Program-made: the position numbers and the translations under genes | NCBI GenBank assembly: GCA_905478225.1 | Contig: CAJQHR010000021.1 | Location: 1 to 64,000, forward strand | Length of the DNA stretch: 64,000 nt | Direction of reading: 5' to 3' | Origin: an uncultured Crocinitomix sp. | Lineage (GTDB): Bacteria; Bacteroidota; Bacteroidia; Flavobacteriales_D; Crocinitomicaceae | Notes under the pieces: generated by a model | What the model was told of the DNA's origin: nothing | What the model saw: only the letters and a program-made list of their open reading frames with translations | Databases searched by the model: none | In this document: positions 33,932-46,071 of the stretch, piece after piece | Layout: the number at the start of each line of letters is the position of its first letter | Position numbering within the stretch: the stretch's first letter is position 1

Positions 33932-33986
33932 ATCTCCAACGCTTTTTTGAAACTATATTCACCAAAACACGTACCTTTCATTGGTA

Positions 33987-35582
33987 ATGCGTAAACTAAT
34001 AAATACTTTCATTCTATTATTGCTCACGGCAATTTCTAGTTCTGCGCAGCTCTATTTGCCTCACAACAACTATTATCAAACAGAAGCAGAGCGTTTACTT
34101 ATCCACAATAAAAACGATACTACTTTTTACCATAACCATGTGAGTTTACGCCCAATGTTGGATACCCGCACCAATCGCGATTCCATATTTGAAATAAGCG
34201 ACAAGAAGTATTATTGGGTGACCGAAAAGCTGTTTAAAGAGAACTTAATCATCTTTAAAGGTCCAGATTTTTGGTGTAGTATTGATCCTATTTTAGATTT
34301 AGAATTGGGCGGTGATTTATCGGCAGATTCATTAGAGAGGTTGTACTGGAACACGAGGGGTATTCGTGTACAAGGGCGCTTTTTTGACAATGTGGGATTC
34401 ACAACATCCTTTTATGAAAATCAAGCCTTACTTCCAGGCTATATGAATGCCTATGCAGATGCCCATGGTGAATTTTTTCCAAATAGCATTAACACAAACT
34501 ATATACAAAACAACGCCGTTATTCCAGGATATGCGCGCACGAAAGTATTTAAAACTACTGGGTATGATTTTGCATTTGCACAAGGAAATATTTCATATGT
34601 TCCAAATCAATATATAAATGCTCAAATCGGAAATGGCAATCATTTTGTAGGAAATGGGTATCGTTCATTATTGCTGTCTGATTTTACGGCAAATTATCCT
34701 TTTGCAAAAGTAGAAGCCAACTTCTTAAAAGGTCGAATTCAATACAACGTCATTTACGCCTTGCATCAAAATTTATATCGTTTGCATGTTTACACTACTC
34801 CCGAAGCAACGTATGAGAAGAAGATAGGTACTTATCAATATTTGGACATTTCACTGTCTGAAAACGTTCAAATCGGAATATTTGAAGGGAAGTTATGGCG
34901 GCGAGTGGATTCATTAGGGAGTCACAAACCAGATTATGGATTTTTAAACCCATTAATCTTTACGACACCACGCGCAAAACAACTGGAAAATGGTGGATTC
35001 AATTCAATACTCGGGTTAAATGTGTCCATCAATTTTGGAAACAACAGAATTTATGGTCAAGCGGTGGTTGACGCAGGAATATTGGGCGCTTTTCAAATCG
35101 GATATAAATTCTTTAATTTAAAAGGACATAAATTAGACGGAGGTGTAGAATTCAATCACGCCAATCTCAATACTTATTTATCCACAGACAAACGGTACAA
35201 TTATTCCCACTATAACTTACCACTTGCCCACCCCTATGTTAATGGATTTAATGAACTAATTCTATATGTTTCCTATCAACACAATCGTTTCTTTTTCCGC
35301 AATCGCATTAACTATTCTCAGCGCACGCAAAACGATTCAACAGCCATTGGAAATGATATTTTATTGCCCCTGTATAACGGAACGCCAACCACAGCTAACC
35401 GATTAGATTATATTGCTTACAATCAATTTGAAATGGGCTACCGATTTAATAAGTCCAATAATTTTCAAGCATTTTTCGGACTATTAACACGAAGTGAGCT
35501 TGACGCAGTTAACAACCCTCTTACAAATTACCCGTATATAGGAGTTAGAACAAGATTAAAGAATAAATACCTTGATTATTAA
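33987..35582 (+). CDS. Outer-membrane beta-barrel protein, Wzi/RemB-like (copy 1)
   Basis: A signal peptide (MRKLINTFILLLLTAISSSAQ) from ATG 33987 leads into about 500 residues of short alternating strands with frequent aromatic girdle residues. Key landmarks are YVPNQYINAQIGNGNHFVGN, GYRSLLLSDFTANYPFAKVE, and a last strand ending GVRTRLKNKYLDY. The plan resembles the capsule-assembly Wzi family and proteins annotated RemB in gliding bacteria. A role in holding or exporting surface polysaccharide fits its place directly before a WecA-like enzyme and after GDP-fucose synthesis. A paralogue lies downstream. Confidence 0.7.
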   Translation: MRKLINTFILLLLTAISSSAQLYLPHNNYYQTEAERLLIHNKNDTTFYHNHVSLRPMLDTRTNRDSIFEISDKKYYWVTEKLFKENLIIFKGPDFWCSIDPILDLELGGDLSADSLERLYWNTRGIRVQGRFFDNVGFTTSFYENQALLPGYMNAYADAHGEFFPNSINTNYIQNNAVIPGYARTKVFKTTGYDFAFAQGNISYVPNQYINAQIGNGNHFVGNGYRSLLLSDFTANYPFAKVEANFLKGRIQYNVIYALHQNLYRLHVYTTPEATYEKKIGTYQYLDISLSENVQIGIFEGKLWRRVDSLGSHKPDYGFLNPLIFTTPRAKQLENGGFNSILGLNVSINFGNNRIYGQAVVDAGILGAFQIGYKFFNLKGHKLDGGVEFNHANLNTYLSTDKRYNYSHYNLPLAHPYVNGFNELILYVSYQHNRFFFRNRINYSQRTQNDSTAIGNDILLPLYNGTPTTANRLDYIAYNQFEMGYRFNKSNNFQAFFGLLTRSELDAVNNPLTNYPYIGVRTRLKNKYLDY

Positions 35583-35585
35583 GAG

Positions 35586-36668
35586 ATGGATTATCACATT
35601 ACATTAGCCTTTATTACCGCTTTCAGCGTTGTACTGCTTGCTACACCTTCTTTAATTAAGGTGGCAAAACTCAAACATTTAGTGGATGAGCCGGTTGAAG
35701 CGCGTAAAAAACATGCCATGAGCATTCCAACCATTGGTGGCGTTATCATTTTTAGCGCCTTCATTTTTTCAAGCTTCCTCTGGTTACCAGTGCATGAACC
35801 GAGTGTGATTGAAGGTATGAGCCAATTCATGTTTTTAATGGCGAGCCTTGTTTTACTTTTCTTTGTGGGTGTTAAGGACGATATAATAGGAATGTCCCCC
35901 ATGAAAAAACTAATTGCCCATGTAATGGTTGGTTTTATTTTAGTGGTCATGGGTGGTATAAAAATCACAAGTTTTCACGGACTCTTGGGTATGGACATTA
36001 TCTTACCAGATTACGCCAGTATATTACTTTCAATCTTCATTTATATTGTCATTGTAAATTCAATTAACCTTATTGACGGAGTTGATGGACTTGCCTCAGG
36101 TGTAGGCCTCATTTCTACCTTAGCATTTGGTTTTTGGTTCTCCTATTTGGGCGATATTCATTGGGCACTAATTTCATTTTCATTATCAGGCGCCTTGTTA
36201 GGATTTTTAGTGTTTAATTTTAATCCCGCTAAGATCTTTATGGGCGATTCAGGATCCTTAATTATTGGCGCAGTAATAAGTGTATTAGCCATTCAACTCA
36301 TTGAATCACCCACGGAGAAATTAGCGATTTTGGGATATGAACATGTCTCAACCCCTGTATTAGCCATGTCTATTTTGGCCTATCCCCTTTTGGATACATT
36401 ACGCGTTTTTATTATTCGAACGCTAAAAGGTAAATCACCATTGAGTGCTGATAGAAATCACTTACATCACAAATTACAATACCGTAAAATGGGACATAGA
36501 AAAACGGTAGTTATCATTTACCTTTTTAGTTTGATCATGATTCTTCAAGCATTTTTTATTCAGTTTGAAAATCCAAACATCAGTTTCTTTATTAGTTTCG
36601 GAACAGCCATGTTGTTTACGTTGATTGTATTTATCGGTGCAAAAAAAAATAAGAATGCGACAGATTAA
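35586..36668 (+). CDS. MraY/WecA-like undecaprenyl-phosphate sugar-1-phosphate transferase
   Basis: A 360-residue multi-spanning enzyme that starts lipid-linked glycan synthesis by moving a HexNAc-1-phosphate onto undecaprenyl phosphate. The family's cytoplasmic-loop motifs are all visible: FVGVKDDIIGMSPMKKL (DD motif), NSINLIDGVDGLASGVGL, FNPAKIFMGDSGSL, and the WecA-type loop DRNHLHHKLQYRKMGHRKT. The last places it with WecA rather than MraY. It is sandwiched between two paralogous barrels, overlapping the second by 14 bases, which points to a polysaccharide export unit. Confidence 0.92.
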   Translation: MDYHITLAFITAFSVVLLATPSLIKVAKLKHLVDEPVEARKKHAMSIPTIGGVIIFSAFIFSSFLWLPVHEPSVIEGMSQFMFLMASLVLLFFVGVKDDIIGMSPMKKLIAHVMVGFILVVMGGIKITSFHGLLGMDIILPDYASILLSIFIYIVIVNSINLIDGVDGLASGVGLISTLAFGFWFSYLGDIHWALISFSLSGALLGFLVFNFNPAKIFMGDSGSLIIGAVISVLAIQLIESPTEKLAILGYEHVSTPVLAMSILAYPLLDTLRVFIIRTLKGKSPLSADRNHLHHKLQYRKMGHRKTVVIIYLFSLIMILQAFFIQFENPNISFFISFGTAMLFTLIVFIGAKKNKNATD

Positions 36669-38211
36669 ATTACTGTCCATATTGTTTTTGCTGATTAGCA
36701 CGGCTGGATACAGTCAGCTTACCTTTAAAAACATGCATTATCGGGATCGGTTGGAAAAATCCGGTCCTTATTTCAAGCCCAATAAAAAAACGCATACCAC
36801 TATTTTTCCAATTCTTGAATCAGGTGTTTACAGTGAGAAATCGGACTCTTCAAAAAATGATAGAGGATATATAGCATTCTCTAACGCTAATAATGAAGAT
36901 GGCAAGCGCAAATATTCGCTAAAAGCATACCCTTTAATTGCTTTAGGCGCTGGACTTGAGGGACAGACTGCAGCAGGAATAGACTTTCAACTCACCACTG
37001 GACTAGGAGCGGCAGTAGACTTTACCGCTGGTAAATTCTTGATCAGTGGGAAATTTCTCCCCTACGCTTCTCGAGGTAGATTTTTACGCGATTCTATTTA
37101 TAATGCGGTAAATTACGATCCAGGTGCAGGCAGAGCAATCTTTGAAAATGGTTTTCAAAAAAGTGAATTATTGGTGGCTTATCGACCAAATCGTTTCTTC
37201 ACCTTTATCGGCGGACACGGGCGGAACACCTTTGGAGAAGGATATCGTTCCTTAATTCTTTCTGACAACGCCATGCCGAATCCGTTTTTCAAGATTGAGA
37301 CTACATTCGCCAATGTGAAATATGTCAACCTCTATCAAATGTGGAAAGACAATTCCATTGATCCAACGGATAAAAGTTTGGACAAAAAGAAATTTGCAGC
37401 CATGCACTATATTAGTTGGAATATTACGAAAGAACTTAATCTAAGTGTGTTTGAAACGGTAATCTGGCAAGCAAATGACACGTTAATTAATCGCGGATTT
37501 GATCCAAACTATATTAATCCAATCGTTTTTTATCGCCCTGTGGAATATGGGAATGGATCTGCAGACAACGTGCTATTGGGGACTAACTTAAGTTATAAGT
37601 TTGACCAGAATCAATCCGTTTATACCCAGATTGTTTTTGACGATTTTTTACTAAAAGAGCTTCGAGCGAGATCACGTTGGTGGGCCAATAAATATGGTTT
37701 TCAAATAGGATATAAGTCACGCGAATTCTTAGATTATGATAACCTCTATTTTCAAACCGAATTTAACGTAGTACGCCCATTTACCTTTTCACACAAGCAT
37801 TCAGGGCAAAGTTATGGAAACATGAACGCCTCAGTTACCCACCCCATTGGTGCTAACTTTTTTGAAGTTCTTAATGTCGTTTCATCCCAACCAAAAAAGA
37901 TTCGATACACGAATAAATTGACTTACTCGGCATACGGAGTAGATAGTTCTGGCGTCAGTTACGGTCAAAATATTTTCGTTTCGTACAGCAATCGGGTTGG
38001 TCAATATAACCACTTAGTGATGCAAGGTTTCCGAAAAAATGTATTAAACGAAACCTTTATTGCAGAAATTCCGCTCCTTCCTAAAATTGATCTTTATGCC
38101 AACTTCACTTACAATTGGAGAATGGAAATTTCAGAGGTGGGCACACAACACAATCATTCGATAATGTTCGGTATTCGTTCGAGAATATGGAATACTTATA
38201 CTGATTTTTAA
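36655..38211 (+). CDS. Outer-membrane beta-barrel protein, Wzi/RemB-like (copy 2)
   Basis: From ATG 36655 (MRQIKLLSILFLLISTAGYSQ, a signal peptide) the 518-residue protein follows the same plan as the gene before wecA. The best shared block is RFFTFIGGHGRNTFGEG plus YRSLILSDNAMPNPFFKIE, equivalent to NGNHFVGNGYRSLLLSD in copy 1; a later YNHLVMQGFRKNV and the barrel end GIRSRIWNTYTDF also correspond. Overall divergence is large, so the duplication is old. It probably works with its partner in surface polysaccharide assembly or adhesion. Confidence 0.7.
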   Translation: MRQIKLLSILFLLISTAGYSQLTFKNMHYRDRLEKSGPYFKPNKKTHTTIFPILESGVYSEKSDSSKNDRGYIAFSNANNEDGKRKYSLKAYPLIALGAGLEGQTAAGIDFQLTTGLGAAVDFTAGKFLISGKFLPYASRGRFLRDSIYNAVNYDPGAGRAIFENGFQKSELLVAYRPNRFFTFIGGHGRNTFGEGYRSLILSDNAMPNPFFKIETTFANVKYVNLYQMWKDNSIDPTDKSLDKKKFAAMHYISWNITKELNLSVFETVIWQANDTLINRGFDPNYINPIVFYRPVEYGNGSADNVLLGTNLSYKFDQNQSVYTQIVFDDFLLKELRARSRWWANKYGFQIGYKSREFLDYDNLYFQTEFNVVRPFTFSHKHSGQSYGNMNASVTHPIGANFFEVLNVVSSQPKKIRYTNKLTYSAYGVDSSGVSYGQNIFVSYSNRVGQYNHLVMQGFRKNVLNETFIAEIPLLPKIDLYANFTYNWRMEISEVGTQHNHSIMFGIRSRIWNTYTDF

Positions 38212-38284
38212 TTCATTCGTAGAATAAGGAGACTTTTTAGAATCATTCTATCTATAAATGGCTCCTTTATTAATTGATTTTTGT

Positions 38285-38292
38285 TAAATTTG
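38285..38292 (+). promoter_or_regulatory. Candidate -7 element of the oxidase operon
   Basis: TAAATTTG is an exact TAnnTTTG match 21 bases before the ctaB ATG, following a gene-free gap of about 100 bases. The nearest TTG is only 8 bases upstream, too close for a standard -33 element. Confidence 0.4.
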
Positions 38293-38312
38293 CAGCCAAA
38301 TTACCAGACGTA

Positions 38313-39209
38313 ATGGTTGCAGAAGAATCGGCTATAGTGAAAACACAGACTCCATCAAAAATGAAAGATTATGCGCTTTTACTAAAATTGCGTTTGGCAT
38401 TTTTGGTCGTACTTTCAGCTATTTCTGGCTATCTCTTTGCTGGCGGAGGATTCGGAGTTGATTTTTGGTTCTTAATTATTGGCGGTTTTTTAATTACAGG
38501 CGCTTCTAACGGATTCAATCAAATTATTGAACGCGATATTGATAAAAAGATGTCCCGTACAGCAAATCGACCCTTACCAACAGGCCGAATGTCGGTTAAT
38601 GAGGCTTTGATAATATCTTCTCTATCGGCGGTAATTGGTGCATTCTTGCTTTTCCAAATAAATTATTTTGCTGGTGTTCTGGGAATATTGGCTTTAGTGC
38701 TTTACGCGCTTATTTACACCCCAATGAAGCGACTTACGCCGTGGTCGGTATTTGTTGGAGCATTTCCAGGTGCTATTCCTCCAATGTTGGGCGTTATTGC
38801 GGTGACAGGTAAATTTGATGCGAATGCGGGAATGGTAGCAGGTTTACTATTTTTCATACAATTCATTTGGCAATTTCCACATTTTTGGGCCATTGCCTGG
38901 GTTTTAGATGAGGACTATACAAAAGGTGGTTTTTCTTTGCTTCCTAGTAAGACGAGAAAATCTAAACGCTCAGCTTTTATTATCCTGTTGTACACGCTTT
39001 TTATGATTCCTGTAAGTTTAATTCCATGGGTATTAGAATTAACAGGAGACTTGACCTTAATTATTGGCGCCATTGCAGGCACTTGGTTCTTTTTATACGC
39101 CTATAAATTATACATGAATTTAGATGATAAATCGGCTAAAAAGCTCATGTTTGCTTCATTCATTTATTTGCCAATTATACAATTTTTATACGTTCTTAAT
39201 AAACTCTAG
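38313..39209 (+). CDS. ctaB: Protoheme IX farnesyltransferase (heme O synthase)
   Basis: Adds a farnesyl tail to heme B to make heme O for heme-copper oxidases. It is a UbiA-type membrane prenyltransferase with about nine helices. The prenyl-diphosphate motif is seen as SNGFNQIIERDIDKKMSRTA, followed by NRPLPTGRMSVNEAL; the second polar motif region is EDYTKGGFSLLPSKTRKS. From ATG 38313 it is 299 residues. It begins the cluster of cytochrome oxidase genes and ends five bases before the next start. Confidence 0.94.
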   Translation: MVAEESAIVKTQTPSKMKDYALLLKLRLAFLVVLSAISGYLFAGGGFGVDFWFLIIGGFLITGASNGFNQIIERDIDKKMSRTANRPLPTGRMSVNEALIISSLSAVIGAFLLFQINYFAGVLGILALVLYALIYTPMKRLTPWSVFVGAFPGAIPPMLGVIAVTGKFDANAGMVAGLLFFIQFIWQFPHFWAIAWVLDEDYTKGGFSLLPSKTRKSKRSAFIILLYTLFMIPVSLIPWVLELTGDLTLIIGAIAGTWFFLYAYKLYMNLDDKSAKKLMFASFIYLPIIQFLYVLNKL

Positions 39210-39214
39210 CAACT

Positions 39215-40276
39215 GTGAAGACATATGACAACGGGAATCAAATTAATCCCGAGCTTAACAAGAAAATAAAGAAAACCCTGATGTGGTTTTTCATATTTGC
39301 TGTTATCATGATTTTCGCTGGATTAACGAGTGGGTATGTCGTTTCGCAAGGCGGTGCTTTCTGGGTAAACATTAAAATGCCTGATGCTTTTAAGATCAGT
39401 ACAATTGCCATAATCATAAGTAGTATTTGTCTTTTCGTTGCACAGCGATCAATCAAACAAGGGAAACAACCACTAGTAAAAGCAAGTTTAGGACTTGCAT
39501 TTGTATTCGGACTTACTTTTGGCATTTATCAATTCATTGGTTGGGGTAAACTTTATGAAGGTGGTAACGCCGTTTCTTCAAGTATAATGAACACACAAGG
39601 AATGTATGGGAAATATTTCTCACTTTCTTATCAGGGCAAGGAGATCACATATAACAATGCGGTATTCACGTATAAAGGCGCAGAAATTTCAGAAGAATTA
39701 ATGGCAGAAATGAAAGCCTTTTCAACTGATTTATATGACGGTTCTAAAACAGATGATAAAGTATACAGCCTGCAAGATTATGGATCAAAATTCTCACTGT
39801 ACCACCGCGGTAAATTAATGACTTTTGTGAATGGAAAATTCATGACAGATGGACTTTTATTGGCTGAAACACAGCATAGACGTCTAGAAAGGTTTGCAGA
39901 AAACATTGTAAATGACCGTGGCGATTTTATCATGAAGGGTAAATACAGAGAAGATTTCGTTATTTATTATGGAGGAGATGCCCTAGAATACTCAAATCGC
40001 AAATTTTACCGCAATGGAGCGGAAATTTCTGCTTTATTATTAGACAAATTAATGAACCAAGGCAACACGGCAAGTTCATACATATACGCTTTTAGCGGAG
40101 TTCACTTCCTTCATTGGATCGGTGGAATCATTGCGCTATTAGTAATGTTTATCAAGGGGTTACAATTAAGATATAGTGAATCGGATTATTTAGGTATTAC
40201 GATCGGTTCAGTTTATTGGCATTTTTTAGGCATATTGTGGCTTTATTTATATACTTTTTTAATTTTTATTCATTAA
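39215..40276 (+). CDS. Cytochrome c oxidase subunit III-like protein with a repeat insertion
   Basis: Started at GTG 39215. Three membrane helices (about residues 21-44, 60-80, 88-112) and two more after residue 284 (YIYAFSGVHFLHWIGGIIAL and GSVYWHFLGILWLYLYTFLI) form the five-helix core of heme-copper oxidase subunit III, with its membrane His residues. Between helices three and four lies about 155 soluble residues that relatives of about 190-200 residues lack. The insertion is three similar units with Y..FSLxYxGK, a strand ending NxxF, and a GAEIS helix (about 130-186, 189-243, 244-283). It should face the periplasm. It precedes the canonical subunit III gene. Confidence 0.8.
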   Translation: MKTYDNGNQINPELNKKIKKTLMWFFIFAVIMIFAGLTSGYVVSQGGAFWVNIKMPDAFKISTIAIIISSICLFVAQRSIKQGKQPLVKASLGLAFVFGLTFGIYQFIGWGKLYEGGNAVSSSIMNTQGMYGKYFSLSYQGKEITYNNAVFTYKGAEISEELMAEMKAFSTDLYDGSKTDDKVYSLQDYGSKFSLYHRGKLMTFVNGKFMTDGLLLAETQHRRLERFAENIVNDRGDFIMKGKYREDFVIYYGGDALEYSNRKFYRNGAEISALLLDKLMNQGNTASSYIYAFSGVHFLHWIGGIIALLVMFIKGLQLRYSESDYLGITIGSVYWHFLGILWLYLYTFLIFIH

Positions 40277-40300: not shown

Positions 40301-41002
40301 ATGTCAGCAGCAACGCAAGAAATCGATCAGTCTAAAGCTTGGGATGGGAAAGAATCTCCGTTTAGAGTGAGTTACGGAAAACTAATGATGTGGTTTTTCT
40401 TAGTTTCAGATGGTTTAACTTTTGGTGGTTTATTAACTGCTTTAGGCTATGCAAAATTCTCAAATGTTGAATCATTAACTGGGGCTTGGCCTTCAGGAGA
40501 GGATGTGTTTTTTCACTTCCCCTTCACACATGCAGAGCTTCCGCTGCTTTATGTAGCGTTCATGACGTTTATTCTAATCGTTTCTTCAGTCACTATGGTA
40601 TTAGCCGTAGAGGCAGGACACCGAATGGATAAAAAAGGAGTCATCAAATGGTTACTTTGGACTGTAATTGGGGGTTTAATATTCTTAGGTTCTCAAGTTT
40701 GGGAGTGGGCAACATTCATTGCGGGTCCTGACGGAGACATCACAACTTGGGTGGACAATGCCACGCTGACCTATAATCCATACGGACCAACATTATACGC
40801 TGATTTTTTCTTCTTTATTACTGGTTTCCACGGATTCCACGTATTTACTGGAGTACTATTCAACAGTTTAGTTTTAAGAAACGTAATACGGGGTGTCTAC
40901 CATAAACGTGGACATTATGAAATGGTTGAAAAAGTAGGACTATACTGGCACTTTGTTGATTTAGTATGGGTTTTTGTATTCACCTTCTATTATTTGGTAT
41001 AA
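40301..41002 (+). CDS. Cytochrome c oxidase subunit III
   Basis: A 233-residue inner-membrane subunit that stabilises subunit I and helps proton uptake. Typical blocks are SYGKLMMWFFLVSDGLTFGG near the start, VTMVLAVEAGHRMDKKGV in mid-chain, FFFITGFHGFHVFTGVLFN (His pair) and VGLYWHFVDLVWVFVFTFYY at the end. Unlike its upstream paralogue it has no large insertion. Subunits I and II are not in the window, so the full oxidase is encoded elsewhere. Confidence 0.93.
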   Translation: MSAATQEIDQSKAWDGKESPFRVSYGKLMMWFFLVSDGLTFGGLLTALGYAKFSNVESLTGAWPSGEDVFFHFPFTHAELPLLYVAFMTFILIVSSVTMVLAVEAGHRMDKKGVIKWLLWTVIGGLIFLGSQVWEWATFIAGPDGDITTWVDNATLTYNPYGPTLYADFFFFITGFHGFHVFTGVLFNSLVLRNVIRGVYHKRGHYEMVEKVGLYWHFVDLVWVFVFTFYYLV

Positions 41003-41046: not shown

Positions 41047-41427
41047 ATGGTTAGAGACGATATTATAGAATATTCATTACACGAGCATCATTCAGAAGAA
41101 GAAGGAAAAAAGATTCGTAAAAAAATCTGGAAAGTAACTATAATACTTTCCGTTATAACAATTTTAGAAGTACTTGTAGGGGCATTTTTCCCGAAGGATT
41201 CATTTGCAGAGGGAAGTATTGCTTGGGAACTCATTAAATACGGTTATATTGTATTAACAGTAATTAAAGCAGGATATATTGTATTAGTGTTTATGCACTT
41301 AGGAGATGAGGCCAAATCGCTGAAGTATATGATTCTTGTTCCTTATACAATTTTCATATTATACTTACTCTTTATTGTATTCACTGAAGCCGCTTACATT
41401 GGCGACGGTTGGATGAACATGCACTAG
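41047..41427 (+). CDS. Cytochrome c oxidase subunit IV family protein
   Basis: A 126-residue protein with three membrane helices (VTIILSVITILEVLVGAFF, YIVLTVIKAGYIVLVFMHLG, YMILVPYTIFILYLLFIVF). The KAGYIVLVFMHLGDE segment is characteristic of the small subunit IV of bacterial heme-copper oxidases. Its N-terminus is His- and Glu-rich (SLHEHHSEEEGKKIRKK). Subunit IV assists assembly around the copper centre. It directly follows subunit III. Confidence 0.88.
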   Translation: MVRDDIIEYSLHEHHSEEEGKKIRKKIWKVTIILSVITILEVLVGAFFPKDSFAEGSIAWELIKYGYIVLTVIKAGYIVLVFMHLGDEAKSLKYMILVPYTIFILYLLFIVFTEAAYIGDGWMNMH

Positions 41428-41471: not shown

Positions 41472-42206
41472 ATGGCCAAGACAAAACGCATATTCCTTGT
41501 TTTGCTCATTTTGTTGGGGCCAGGCTCGATAATTTATTTCATTTCAAGAACGGTAAGTAATCACTTTATTAAAATGCCGTATATCGGTTTTGAGTATACG
41601 TTAGACTCTAATGGAAACAAGATAGACTCTGTCGCATACTCAGTTCCTGACATTCACTTAACCACCTTTGATGGCACACCAATTACGAGAGATTCTATTG
41701 ATGGAAAATTTATTGTATTAACTACATTGCAGAACGAATGCCCTGACATGAGTCAATGCGGAATGGGTATTTACCACTTCAATGAGATTTTCTTTAAAAG
41801 ATTAGTCAAGAATCAAAAGAACTACAGCAACGTTCGCGTACTTTCCATCTTAACTGATGCAGACGGAAAACCAATAAACGAACCTTCTCAAAAATTGAGA
41901 GATGAAATGTTGCAATACGACTCGACCGGACTTTGGTGGATGACCACTGGAGATGTTACTCCATTTTACAATTTCAATTATTATGGCGACAAATTCATCA
42001 ATCACCCCGCCTCATCCAAGGATGGCGAAATTGGATTAAAAGCCCATACCAATAGTATTGTACTTATTGACGATAAAGGGTGTATACGTGGTGTATCGGG
42101 CGCTAAAACGGATTCACATATCCGTAATTTCTTTGACATGCTTAAATTGTTGAAAAAAGAAGATTTTGACCGAAAAAGAGCCGAGAAAGAAGCGAACGAA
42201 GCTTAA
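41472..42206 (+). CDS. SCO-like thioredoxin-fold membrane protein with CxxxxxC
   Basis: An N-terminal anchor (FLVLLILLGPGSIIYFI) and a periplasmic thioredoxin-like domain. The layout parallels the SCO protein encoded next to it: PYIGF near the start, SVPDIHLTTFDGTPITRDSI, VLTTLQNECPDMSQCGMG, and KAHTNSIVLIDDKGCIRG. The His corresponding to the SCO copper ligand is present (about residue 192), but the Cys pair (about 90 and 96) is spaced by five residues rather than three. It could be a copper-site redox helper rather than a copper donor. It sits between subunit IV and SCO, so a terminal-oxidase role is likely. Confidence 0.72.
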   Translation: MAKTKRIFLVLLILLGPGSIIYFISRTVSNHFIKMPYIGFEYTLDSNGNKIDSVAYSVPDIHLTTFDGTPITRDSIDGKFIVLTTLQNECPDMSQCGMGIYHFNEIFFKRLVKNQKNYSNVRVLSILTDADGKPINEPSQKLRDEMLQYDSTGLWWMTTGDVTPFYNFNYYGDKFINHPASSKDGEIGLKAHTNSIVLIDDKGCIRGVSGAKTDSHIRNFFDMLKLLKKEDFDRKRAEKEANEA

Positions 42207-42294: not shown

Positions 42295-42302
42295 TATCTT
42301 TG
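42295..42302 (+). promoter_or_regulatory. Candidate -7 element of the SCO gene
   Basis: TATCTTTG is an exact TAnnTTTG 25 bases before the SCO ATG. No TTG stands at the expected distance upstream. If real, the SCO-DUF420 pair can be transcribed apart from the oxidase genes. Confidence 0.4.
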
Positions 42303-42326
42303 TGCCGTAATAAGAATTATTTTACA

Positions 42327-42998
42327 ATGAAAAAAATCACACTATTCTTAGCCATTCCGTTCCTATTAATCGCTTGTAGCGGTGACGCTGAAAATGACAC
42401 AACCGAAACTCCATCAGGATCAGGGTTACCCTATCTTGGATTTCATGACTACGGAAAAGTAATGAAAGACGGCAACGAAGTAATGGACACTATTTACCAT
42501 TCGGTGCCAGAATTCTTTTTAACAGCGCAAGACAGCTCCGACTTTACGAAGGAAAATGTGGAAGGCAAAGTACACGTGGTGAACTTTTTCTTTACCAGTT
42601 GTCCATCTATCTGCCCAGCAATGATTGCACAAATGAAACGCTTACAAGGCAACACGGCAGATATTGACGAATTGTTGTTCCTGTCTCACACAATTGATCC
42701 GCGACGAGATACAATTCCCAAGCTAAACGCTTATATCAAGAAGAAAGAATTGGATACCCGTAATTGGTACTTTTTGTACGGAGAGAAAGAATATGTGCAC
42801 GACCTAGGCATTAACGGATATATGATTAATGCTATGGAAGACGAGGCGGCTGAAGGTGGATTCTTACATTCAGAACATTTTATATTGGTTGACCGTGAAG
42901 GACATATAAGAGGTTTATATGAAGGAACAGATACAGACCGTGTTGATCAACTTGAAAAGGATATTCGTAAACTAATTAAAACCGAATATGGCGAATAA
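42327..42998 (+). CDS. SCO1/SenC family copper chaperone lipoprotein
   Basis: Delivers copper to the CuA centre of cytochrome c oxidase. From ATG 42327 it has a lipoprotein signal MKKITLFLAIPFLLIAC. The copper-binding CxxxC is VNFFFTSCPSICPAM (about residues 92 and 96), and the third ligand His is in GGFLHSEHFILVDREG (about residue 180). LSHTIDPRRDTIPKLNAYIK is the usual SCO sequence after the second strand. The last 11 bases overlap the DUF420 start. Confidence 0.92.
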   Translation: MKKITLFLAIPFLLIACSGDAENDTTETPSGSGLPYLGFHDYGKVMKDGNEVMDTIYHSVPEFFLTAQDSSDFTKENVEGKVHVVNFFFTSCPSICPAMIAQMKRLQGNTADIDELLFLSHTIDPRRDTIPKLNAYIKKKELDTRNWYFLYGEKEYVHDLGINGYMINAMEDEAAEGGFLHSEHFILVDREGHIRGLYEGTDTDRVDQLEKDIRKLIKTEYGE

Positions 42999-43557: not shown

Positions 43558-44127
43558 ATGGCTTTTTTAGTTGGCTTGCTTCTTCTTTTTACGCCTTATT
43601 ATCAAAAAGAGATTCAATCACGCTTAAGCGCTAATCAATGGCGCTTATATAAAACGGTAGAAGTCCTTAAAAACAACCAACGAACAGATACTATAGTTGA
43701 CCAGGACACTACGATTATTAAAATTGGCTACAAACAATTTACCAGTAACTTTCGAGGAGGAAATCTGGATCTAAATCCTGATTCAACTGGGCGAATCAAC
43801 TATTACAACATAATTTGGTGTCCAATAGGAAACAATCAACTTGTTGTGCAACATGATTCAAGTGGAAACTATCGTCACAATGATTTTTTCAGAGGAACTT
43901 TTAATGTGACAAAACTCACTGATTCGTCAGCTATTTTAGAAAAAATAATTGCTACTAACGGAAATTGGATACGTACTTTTCACCTTAAAAAAACGGGCAG
44001 ATTAAAGCGTATGATTGAAATCGCAAATATCCCTTTTAAAAGGTTTAAAGGTAAGCATGACGCCATAAAAAGAATACCAATCCTTATTATTGGGATTGCC
44101 ACGATTCATTCCATTCGTCCCCTCTAA
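43558..44127 (+). CDS. Small hypothetical envelope protein, 3' end antisense to a barrel gene
   Basis: A short hydrophobic start (MAFLVGLLLLFTPYYQ) is followed by a lipocalin-like body (LSANQWRLYKTVEVLKNNQR, NIIWCPIGNNQLVVQHDS, DFFRGTFNVTKLTDSSAILE). I cannot name the family. The final 42 codons (after TFHLKKTGRLKR) overlap 126 bases of the convergent barrel gene and look like antisense, not family, sequence. The natural stop was probably lost or shifted, so the C-terminus is doubtful. Its only link to the oxidase genes is position. Confidence 0.55.
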   Translation: MAFLVGLLLLFTPYYQKEIQSRLSANQWRLYKTVEVLKNNQRTDTIVDQDTTIIKIGYKQFTSNFRGGNLDLNPDSTGRINYYNIIWCPIGNNQLVVQHDSSGNYRHNDFFRGTFNVTKLTDSSAILEKIIATNGNWIRTFHLKKTGRLKRMIEIANIPFKRFKGKHDAIKRIPILIIGIATIHSIRPL

Positions 44128-44844
44128 GCTTCTATTCGCCAAATCAGCAGCCAATGGCCCATTTTCTGCTCGTAGCATGTCTGCATCCACGTAAACGCCT
44201 GAAACATCATCTAAATAGTCCGTAAAGGTTTTACGAATCCCATATTCAAAGGACACCGCAACGCGCTTTGCCAAATTCATTTTTATTCCAACCCCTAATG
44301 GAATGGTAAATTGGTTAAGCGAATAATTCCTTTTGGTAGATGCGCTTGTCCCCTGTCCCTCTGTACCTAATACCTGTAAAGCAATGTCATTACCATTATA
44401 CGTTGTCATTGGATTGATGCGCGTGTATGCCATTTGATAAAAGAAATATGGACTAATGGGATAGCGCATATCTTTAATGCGGTATTTAAACAAGTTAATC
44501 TCATAACCAACCGCCAATTCCATTATACTTGATTTGAAATTCAAATTTCGATTGACTTGTGCCTCCGTTTTACCTTCTGCATCATCTCCATAAACATTCC
44601 CATAAAACGCTGTTGCTCTAACAGAATGACGCGTAGAAAGATTATAACGATATACCAAGCCAAAACCTGGTTCGCTATTCACAAAATGTTTATTCGGATT
44701 TAAATCTCCAATATAATAAGAGCCTCCTCCGTAAACACCAATTTCAGTAGATGTTTTATAGGCTTGTCCCCAAGAGAAAGTTGAAATTATTGTAAACAAA
44801 GTGAATACAATGGTTTGCTTCAACCAATTGCTATTATTTCCCAT
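44002..44844 (-). CDS. DUF6089-like outer-membrane barrel protein, paralogue 1
   Basis: From ATG 44844 there is a signal peptide (MGNNSNWLKQTIVFTLFTII ... SWGQ) and a barrel of about 250 residues. Landmarks are TEIGVYGGGSYYIGDLNPNK, SPYFFYQMAYTRINPMTTYN, RNYSLNQFTIPLGVGIKMNL and EYGIRKTFTDYLDDVSG. It ends MLTFKPFKRDICDFNHTL. The same landmarks recur in the two next genes on this strand. An earlier ATG (44919) would place 25 odd residues before the signal, so I reject it. Role unknown; probably a structural envelope protein. Confidence 0.78.
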   Translation of the reverse strand: MGNNSNWLKQTIVFTLFTIISTFSWGQAYKTSTEIGVYGGGSYYIGDLNPNKHFVNSEPGFGLVYRYNLSTRHSVRATAFYGNVYGDDAEGKTEAQVNRNLNFKSSIMELAVGYEINLFKYRIKDMRYPISPYFFYQMAYTRINPMTTYNGNDIALQVLGTEGQGTSASTKRNYSLNQFTIPLGVGIKMNLAKRVAVSFEYGIRKTFTDYLDDVSGVYVDADMLRAENGPLAADLANRSLEGTNGMNRGNPNNKDWYSFYGVMLTFKPFKRDICDFNHTL

Positions 44845-45237
44845 TTGCTGCACGTTCATCAGGTCTATAAACGTGATAGAATGTGTATTATTGTCGAATA
44901 CCGCAGTAAATTGACTCAAGGTTAAAAGTTGTGATTATTAGCCGATAATTCTTAAAATCAAACATTTCAATTACTCGTCACCTAATTATGGCTTTGGATT
45001 CGAACTTTTTGCTCGTAAGTCGACATGCTCAACAGCCAACCAAAAGTACCAAAAAAGGCTTCTCGGCACATTCTCAAATCAATTTCAGACTGAATGCCAT
45101 TCAAGGTTATAACAAACTCACACCTTCGAATGGAGTTTAGAGTTGTGCTTTATTCTCTTTTATTGAAAGACACAATCATCTCTATAATGAAATGTACCCT
45201 ATGAAGATTTTGAAACTTGGAATTAAGCTGAGATGAA
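44845..45237. other. Gene-free spacer between barrel paralogues
   Basis: About 390 bases with no convincing gene. On the minus strand around 44990-45060 is a short open stretch encoding AFFGTFGWLLSMSTYEQK, which I take to be chance or a relic. A promoter for the downstream barrel should be here. Confidence 0.4.
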
Positions 45238-46071
45238 TTATCGCCAGCCACGCATTTCGCAAATATCTTTTTTAAATGGCTTAAAGGTTAACATGACGCC
45301 ATAAAATGAATACCAATCCTTACTTAATGATGTTCCACGGTTTAAGCCAGCTTTACTTCCGGAAGATAAACTTCTGTCTGATAATTGCGCAGAAAGGGGA
45401 CCGTTTAATCCTGTTGCCACATCACTGTCTAAATAATTCCCTGAAACGTCATCAATATAATCAGTAAATGTTTTACGTATTCCATATTCAATTGACATGG
45501 CTACGCGTTTTTTTAGATTAAATTTTAAACCTATCCCCAATGGAACTGTAAATTGATTCAAACTGTATCTATTCGTTTTTGTACCCGGCAGCCCTGACCC
45601 CTGCCCTTCTGTTGCCAATGGCTGCAAAGCATAATCAATTCCGTTAAATTCAGCTTTTGGATTAATTCGTGTGTAGGCAAATTGATAAAAGAAATAAGGA
45701 CTGATGGGATATTTCATATCATTAATACGATACTTAAATAGATCAATTTCAAATCCGAAGGCAAATTCAAGCACTTGTGTTTTGAAACTTAAATTACGGT
45801 CAATATGTCTAGGGTCTGCACTCTTTTCATCCTGCCCATAAACGTTTCCATAGGTTACATTAAAGCGCAATGAATGTCGAGTAGATAGGTTATATCTGAA
45901 AATGCCTCCATAGGCCAACTTGCTATGAATAAAATGTTTTCCAGGATTAATATCTCCAATATAATAAGATCCGCCACCAAAAAAACCAGCCTCCGCCGAA
46001 GTTTTAAATCCTTGCGAAAAACCTGTTGAACTTAATGTAGCGCAAAACAATGCGACTAATAAAACGCGCAT
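45238..46071 (-). CDS. DUF6089-like outer-membrane barrel protein, paralogue 2
   Basis: A signal peptide (MRVLLVALFCATLSSTGFSQ) and the family plan: AEAGFFGGGSYYIGDINPGK, then FGFEIDLFKYRINDMKYPIS, PYFFYQFAYTRINPKAEFNG and SIEYGIRKTFTDYIDDVSGN. It ends MLTFKPFKKDICEMRGWR. It is close to paralogue 1 (the periplasmic turn FKYRI.DM.YPISPYFFYQ is almost identical). Its start overlaps the third paralogue's stop by 16 bases, so those two are one transcript. Confidence 0.8.
   Translation of the reverse strand: MRVLLVALFCATLSSTGFSQGFKTSAEAGFFGGGSYYIGDINPGKHFIHSKLAYGGIFRYNLSTRHSLRFNVTYGNVYGQDEKSADPRHIDRNLSFKTQVLEFAFGFEIDLFKYRINDMKYPISPYFFYQFAYTRINPKAEFNGIDYALQPLATEGQGSGLPGTKTNRYSLNQFTVPLGIGLKFNLKKRVAMSIEYGIRKTFTDYIDDVSGNYLDSDVATGLNGPLSAQLSDRSLSSGSKAGLNRGTSLSKDWYSFYGVMLTFKPFKKDICEMRGWR

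What the first reader, a model, noticed from the sequence alone, without database searches (positions are those of the whole stretch)
39215..40276. Oxidase subunit III-like protein with a three-unit soluble insertion
About 155 residues stand between membrane helices 3 and 4, built of three similar units: Y..FSLxYxGKxI, a strand with NxxF, then GAEIS and a helix. Standard subunit III proteins of this type are about 190-200 residues without it. The insertion would face the periplasm where cytochrome c or an assembly factor docks. I do not know a described counterpart.
Basis: partly seen in the sequence, partly recalled or inferred. Interest (0 to 1): 0.6.

Follow-up and report, generated by a model that had tools for sequence, protein, structure and literature searches.

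The report
Oxidase subunit with repeated periplasmic arm
A bacterial respiratory-oxidase subunit carries a water-exposed arm made of three copies of a small protein module, and related bacteria carry none, one, about two, three or probably five copies; the module has no convincing match in the family and structure libraries searched, and the arm probably helps hold respiratory enzymes together.

Summary
The 353-aa protein (39215-40276, +) is a five-helix subunit III-type protein (here COX3a). AlphaFold2 (pLDDT 91) gives a COX3 core (Z 20, 1.9 A over 180 residues) with about 165 residues between helices 3 and 4, folded as three strand-rich units, each ending in a helix. Profile comparison supports the repeat (E 4e-7 to 1e-10; 0 of 200 column shuffles per pair reach it). 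The window's insert has no family match over a cut-off and no convincing PDB match by sequence or fold. It is not peculiar to this genome: 191 of 200 same-family genomes match the protein. Relatives carry 0 units (about 190 aa; Flavobacterium, Maribacter, Myroides loci), 1 (seen in 15 families), about 2, 3, or probably 5; the 2 and 5 are read by eye. Single units match the third unit best (45 of 51). COX3a lacks the conserved acid of subunit III; the next gene (COX3b) keeps an Asp. The genome's only COX1 lies in an alternative complex III (ACIII) gene run. Best reading: a periplasmic protein-contact arm of the ACIII-linked aa3 oxidase; which partner it touches is inferred.

The parts
39215..40276 (+). 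COX3a: subunit III-type protein, 353 aa, five membrane helices plus insert
39248..39355 (+). membrane helix 1 (residues 12-47); residue V30 stands where subunit III normally has an acidic residue
39383..39457 (+). membrane helix 2 (residues 57-81)
39467..39559 (+). membrane helix 3 (residues 85-115)
39593..39760 (+). insert unit U1 (residues 127-182): strands 135-139, 142-147, 150-153, helix 160-178
39761..39928 (+). insert unit U2 (residues 183-238): strands 193-197, 203-205, 208-211, helix 218-232; conserved R235-G-D-F238 junction
39929..40075 (+). insert unit U3 (residues 239-287): strands 248-252, 258-260, 263-266, helix 273-281; the unit that single-unit relatives match best
40067..40162 (+). 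membrane helix 4 (residues 285-316), with conserved H297 and H300
40190..40270 (+). membrane helix 5 (residues 326-352), WHFLGILW motif
40301..41002 (+). COX3b: second subunit III-type protein, 233 aa, keeps the acidic residue (Asp) and has a short loop 3-4 (33 residues in its closest relatives)
41047..41427 (+). oxidase subunit IV (COX4_pro)
38274..39209 (+). UbiA-family prenyltransferase, CtaB-like by position (heme O synthase; name recalled)
42300..42998 (+). SCO1/SenC (copper delivery to the oxidase; role recalled)

Best explanation
COX3a is a second, non-canonical subunit III-type membrane protein of the single aa3-type cytochrome c oxidase that works with alternative complex III in this bacterium. 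Its loop between helices 3 and 4 has been built up from copies of one small strand-rich module into a periplasmic arm. The arm shows no redox group. It works as a protein-contact surface that fastens the oxidase to a periplasmic or membrane partner, most likely the periplasmic part of ACIII or the neighbouring oxidase subunits, and unit number adapts the arm to the partner in each lineage. Shown: the module repeat, its place, its side (by charge rule), its restriction to COX3a in what was searched, its varying copy number, absence of a c-heme motif, and the ACIII genome context. Inferred: that it is a contact arm, and which partner it touches.
For: Model and core match; repeat statistics; conservation of the insert in 46 sequences, with invariant G129, Y131, F238, G242, F248, Y259 and R235, G236, D247 at 96-98%, mean pairwise identity 37% insert, 47% in U3, 51% core; unit series; single COX1 in the genome, in a gene run with ActD by Pfam and ActA, ActB, ActC, ActE by order and domain, an unnamed gene in the ActF position and CoxB; 33 of 33 genomes with an insert match in the class sample also have ActD; review passage that the F. 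johnsoniae ACIII-aa3 contact is through subunit III (PMC8361435, passage read); no Cys in 37 of 46 inserts, no CXXCH in any.
Against: Flavobacterium loci in this set have 0 units (L096, L098), yet F. [quoted passage not shown] ActD is in 267 of 295 class genomes, so 33 of 33 hardly discriminates. No complex was modelled and no contact surface was tested. Subunit III and the cytochrome c site on subunit II lie on opposite sides of subunit I (recalled), so the arm may only touch oxidase subunits.
Confidence: 0.45

Rival explanations
1. The arm is a structural cap within the oxidase itself: it lies over COX3b, subunit I or subunit II on the periplasmic face and stabilises the complex, like the added subunits of mitochondrial oxidases, without contacting ACIII.
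For: COX3a and COX3b are adjacent genes, and both have variable loops 3-4. A review passage says yeast Cox13 touches Cox1, Cox3 and Cox12 on the p side (PMC8361435, passage read), so p-side caps on subunit III exist.
Against: COX3b loop length does not track unit number in a simple way: 33-54 residues in 13 and 143-201 in 32 of 45 three-unit loci.
Confidence: 0.3
2. The arm is a docking site for a soluble electron carrier (cytochrome c) or an assembly factor.
For: It faces the periplasm by the charge rule and an SCO1/SenC gene lies in the same gene run.
Against: No acidic bias: net charge -1 in the window, median +2, range -11 to +11 in 46 sequences. ActA here has its own N-terminal cytochrome c domain, and in F. 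johnsoniae such a domain is proposed to hand electrons to the oxidase (PMC8552683, introduction read).
Confidence: 0.15
3. The repeats are passive growth of a loop under weak constraint, with no particular function.
For: The insert is less conserved than the membrane core (37% against 51% mean identity) and copy number varies.
Against: Every row printed in the same-family search runs across the insert to query residue 352-353, six residues are invariant in 46 sequences, and U3 is nearly as conserved as the core (47%).
Confidence: 0.1

Closest known systems
COX3 / cytochrome c oxidase subunit III (PF00510), five-helix type as in CyoC, CtaE
   Same: Membrane core: Z about 15-20 to COX3, CyoC and CtaE-type chains; conserved histidines and WHF motif.
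   Different: 165-residue periplasmic insert between helices 3 and 4; V, I or S in 46 of 46 aligned COX3a rows where COX3b has Asp and the three PDB chains printed have Glu.
Subunit III of the Flavobacterium johnsoniae ACIII-aa3 supercomplex (EMD-7447)
   Same: Five-helix subunit III, ACIII partner, same kind of ACIII genes (passages and introduction read; own genome).
   Different: Flavobacterium COX3a proteins seen here have no units. Which of the two subunit III genes was seen in that map is not known to me; the paper (PMC6004266) is not held.
Topoisomerase C-terminal repeat (Toprim_C_rpt, PF13368)
   Same: A short GRYGxY stretch; weak Pfam matches in 3 of 46 inserts, best E 0.11. U1 aligns with TopA repeats at 61% probability, and 0 of 100 shuffles reached its score.
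   Different: The U1 alignment covers 19 columns only, and the TopA repeats had been picked by that very motif; U2 5%, U3 0.5%, and 30 of 100 shuffles equal or beat U3, although U3 is the widespread unit. Not accepted as a relative.

Membership tests
Cytochrome c oxidase subunit III (PF00510) | Pfam COX3 profile above the curated cut-off | tested here: met
   29.7 bits against 23.8, residues 288-350
Cytochrome c oxidase subunit III (PF00510) | COX3 membrane fold | tested here: met
   Z 20, 1.9 A over 180 residues to 6hu9_c
Cytochrome c oxidase subunit III (PF00510) | Conserved acidic residue in the helix equivalent to COX3 helix III (Glu90 in bovine and Rhodobacter numbering, recalled) | tested here: not met
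   V 33, I 12, S 1 of 46 aligned rows; COX3b has Asp in 103 of 110 frames (some genomes twice), 7 not matched by the pattern. So it is filed as a subunit III-type paralogue, not as a canonical subunit III.
Cytochrome c oxidase subunit III (PF00510) | Physical part of an assembled oxidase | not testable with these tools
   Only gene context: next to COX3b and COX4_pro; single COX1 elsewhere in the genome
Named NCBIfam subunit III models (CyoC, QoxC, aa3_CtaE_Actin) | Score over the curated cut-off | tested here: not met
   Best 41.6 bits against 190
Toprim_C_rpt (PF13368) | Pfam match at E 0.001 or better, over the whole repeat | tested here: not met
   Best E 0.11 in 46 inserts; rows printed for 24 same-family genomes lie in frames of 716-846 aa, not in COX3a; profile comparison local and in U1 only
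Any solved fold for the insert | Structural match of the insert modelled alone | tested here: inconclusive
   Foldseek PDB: 0 of 44 matches with E <= 0.001; VIA: 0 of 304 chains with Z >= 2; a missing match does not prove a new fold, and a single unit was not modelled alone

The most novel reading that the evidence does not exclude
The module is a new small fold, found only in COX3a in what was searched, and its copy number (0 to 5) works as a molecular ruler or spacer: lineages add or drop units so that the oxidase's periplasmic arm reaches a partner, probably ACIII, at the right distance.
Probability: 0.2. Interest if true: 0.75.

Novelty: new variant of a known kind. Interest (0 to 1): 0.5.

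Why it matters
ACIII is widespread in this class (ActD in 267 of 295 genomes), yet none of the 50 structure rows nearest to COX3a is titled as a protein of this group. A subunit that carries 0 to about 5 copies of one module at one site is a natural series for testing how respiratory enzymes are tied together, and tells structure workers which species to pick.

Tried and rejected
Topoisomerase repeat origin: followed from a weak Pfam lead with 24 genomes and 30 TopA repeats picked by a GRYGPY-type motif. Against my rejection: U1 scores above all 100 shuffles (23.6, best shuffle 16.0). For it: only 19 columns align, U2 gives 5% and U3 0.5%, with 30 of 100 shuffles at or above U3.

COX3b loop 3-4 as the source of the units: hhalign probability 9% (U1), 0.2% (U2), 0.3% (U3); rejected.

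Free-standing or other proteins with the unit: own genome, insert profile at E <= 10 gives COX3a (1.3e-62) and one chance-level hit, E 0.27; all 26 matches outside the own family in 295 class genomes are COX3a when tested with a core-only profile; among 1470 open frames of at least 100 aa in the first 112 loci, leaving out those that COX3a itself matches, the best score with the unit profile is 6.7 bits, E 0.41.

Library and fold matches for the insert. Pfam: window insert, one match below its cut-off (13.5 against 25 bits); over 46 inserts scanned singly, many scattered families, best E 0.0025, each in at most 4 members, cut-offs of members not shown. PHROGs: best E 0.12. PDB by sequence: best E 0.89 for the insert profile. 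Foldseek PDB and BFVD: none with E <= 0.001. Papers: searches (20 of 8,606 listed) listed no paper whose title or abstract start names such an insertion; I read only the introduction and passages of PMC8552683 and passages of PMC8361435.

Long frames in f21 genomes and their kin (603-611 and 322-323 aa: L082, L183, L184, L191, L197): looked like fusions, but a plausible ATG lies just before the normal N-terminus in G+C-rich DNA; not counted as fusions. Order of gain and loss: a core tree (126 proteins, 184 columns) puts the 47 three-unit proteins in four places with supports as low as 0.26, so I claim neither one origin nor a direction. Counts by eye: the unit profile at over 10 bits undercounts; it gives L144 one unit and L145 two (read as three), f13 proteins none or one (read as about two), f3-type proteins one to three (read as five).

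Rows dropped: from the tree, truncated or duplicate proteins L155, L164, L094, L077, L083, L202, L191, L163, L169, L167, and the genome-search loci L003-L032. In the single-unit count 56 entries were reduced to 51 distinct: 45 match U3 best, 3 U1, 1 U2, 2 too low; with a margin of at least 5 bits 32, all U3.

Full report
What is there. The ORF at 39215-40276 (+) encodes 353 aa. Pfam finds COX3 over residues 288-350 (29.7 bits, cut-off 23.8). AlphaFold2 on an alignment of 46 sequences gives pLDDT 91.2 and pTM 0.82 with five long helices and, between H85-115 and H285-316, three runs of strands each followed by a helix. The membrane part matches COX3 chains with Z about 20 and 1.9 A over 180 residues. 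In the three PDB alignments printed, known subunits III align up to profile positions 116-120 and again from 283, so the insert is about residues 119-284.

The repeat is real. Unit alignments U1 (127-182), U2 (183-238) and U3 (239-287), cut from 46 sequences, align to each other with hhalign probabilities of 97% (U1-U3), 95% (U2-U3) and 87% (U1-U2). Observed scores were 38 to 57; the best of 200 column shuffles per pair was 10.7 to 13.6. The insert modelled alone keeps most of the layout at pLDDT 88.6; the first strand of U3 is not called there as a run of three or more residues.

Side of the membrane. K+R counts follow the positive-inside rule: mean 4.4 in the N-terminus, 3.1 in loop 2-3, 2.2 in loop 4-5, 1.0 in loop 1-2. 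This puts loop 3-4, and so the insert, in the periplasm. It is an inference from charge, not a measurement.

How widespread. 191 of 200 genomes of the same family match the protein at E <= 0.001; every row printed runs from query residue 1-17 to 352-353, across the insert, but the list is cut and the per-genome table includes weak best matches, for example 3.3e-4 and 1.4e-9. That the family is Crocinitomicaceae is inferred from the named relatives (Crocinitomix). Of 102 distinct proteins not used in the alignment, the unit profile finds three units over 10 bits in 18, two in 5, one in 44 and none in 35. The profile undercounts distant units, so I also read the sequences. By reading: no units in Flavobacterium, Myroides, Maribacter, Saprospiraceae and Sphingobacteriaceae loci (14 of 17 zero-unit frames 186-198 aa); one unit in 15 families, eight of the order (f2, f4-f10) and seven more of the class (238-283 aa apart from frames that run on upstream or are cut off); about two in family f13 (303-308 aa); three in the own family and in L144 and L145; probably five in family f3 and L076, L080, L085 (413-439 aa). 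In the whole-class sample the insert profile matched only 33 of 295 genomes, 25 of them outside the own family; it is a weak probe for single units, so the share of the class with one unit is not known.

Which unit is the widespread one. Of the 26 matches outside the own family 25 begin at profile positions 109-125, that is about U3; one lies at 8-38. All 26 were fetched and all 26 are COX3a by a core-only profile (E <= 2.5e-51). Of 51 distinct single-unit proteins 45 score best with U3, 3 with U1, 1 with U2, 2 too low. So the single unit corresponds to U3. Whether U1-U2 were gained in some lineages or lost in others is open: the core tree is too weak.

A second kind of subunit III. The next gene, COX3b (40301-41002), is closer to known subunit III (Pfam E 1.8e-14 against 7.8e-7). 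COX3b has Asp at the acidic position in 103 of 110 frames (some genomes twice; 7 not matched by the pattern), while all 46 aligned COX3a rows have V, I or S. That position is Glu in the three PDB chains printed; that it is the DCCD-binding Glu90 is recalled. COX3a therefore is a subunit III-type paralogue that lacks one classical feature.

The enzyme it belongs to. The genome (98.5% complete) has one COX1, on contig C1, in a run of a multiheme protein with an N-terminal cytochrome c domain (ActA by order), an iron-sulfur protein (ActB), NrfD (ActC), ActD (named by Pfam), a cytochrome c (ActE), a gene in the ActF position without Pfam match, CoxB and CoxA. The window genes are on another contig. 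ActD is present in 33 of 33 class genomes with an insert match and in 267 of 295 overall, so the link to ACIII fits but is not selective. A review states that in the F. johnsoniae supercomplex ACIII-oxidase interactions are mediated by subunit III with five helices (PMC8361435, passage read). F. [quoted passage not shown]

What it does. The insert has no Cys in 37 of 46 sequences and one in 9, no CXXCH, and no steady charge, which speaks against a heme of its own or an acidic cytochrome c dock. Invariant G129, Y131, F238, G242, F248, Y259 and near-invariant R235, G236, D247 sit mostly at the U2-U3 junction and in U3. The likeliest role is a protein-contact arm. ACIII is the favoured partner because subunit III is the reported contact in a related bacterium; the oxidase's own subunits are nearly as likely. 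Against ACIII stands that Flavobacterium loci seen here have no units although F. johnsoniae forms the supercomplex.

Novelty. The window's insert has no match over a cut-off in Pfam or NCBIfam, best PHROG E 0.12; no PDB chain matches the insert profile by sequence (best E 0.89) and none the insert model by fold. Scattered weak Pfam matches in single relatives are told under Tried and rejected. The paper searches found nothing on it in their listings; subscription papers are mostly not held, so this is limited. I file it as a new variant of a known kind: a known oxidase subunit type with an undescribed, copy-variable periplasmic module.

Noticed in passing
40301-41002 and L033-L112: COX3b loop 3-4 is only 33-54 residues in 13 three-unit loci of the Crocinitomix-like group but 143-201 residues in the 32 other three-unit loci, and 27-157 in 13 zero-unit loci; this second variable periplasmic loop shows no sequence relation to the COX3a units.
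   Followed up: partly
41472-42206: 244-aa gene before SCO1 with no Pfam match at E 0.001; it carries CPDMSQC where the neighbour SCO1 has CPSIC, so it may be a diverged SCO-type paralogue.
   Followed up: no
L176:13217-14551: CoxB is 445 aa, with about 145 residues between its transmembrane and CuA domain matches and a His-rich C-terminal tail.
   Followed up: no
33981-35582 and 36625-38211: Two similar-sized (533 and 528 aa) proteins without Pfam match at E 0.001 flank a Glycos_transf_4 protein; they look like outer-membrane barrel proteins of the Wzi type (recalled, untested).
   Followed up: no
44002-44919 and 45238-46071: Neighbouring, similar outer-membrane-like proteins on the minus strand.
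   Followed up: no
L166-L172 (family f9): Single-unit COX3a proteins of this family carry an extra stretch of about 20 residues with a YRWN or YSWN motif just before the unit.
   Followed up: no
L089, L091: COX3a proteins with a short extra stretch in loop 3-4 that does not match the unit profile.
   Followed up: no
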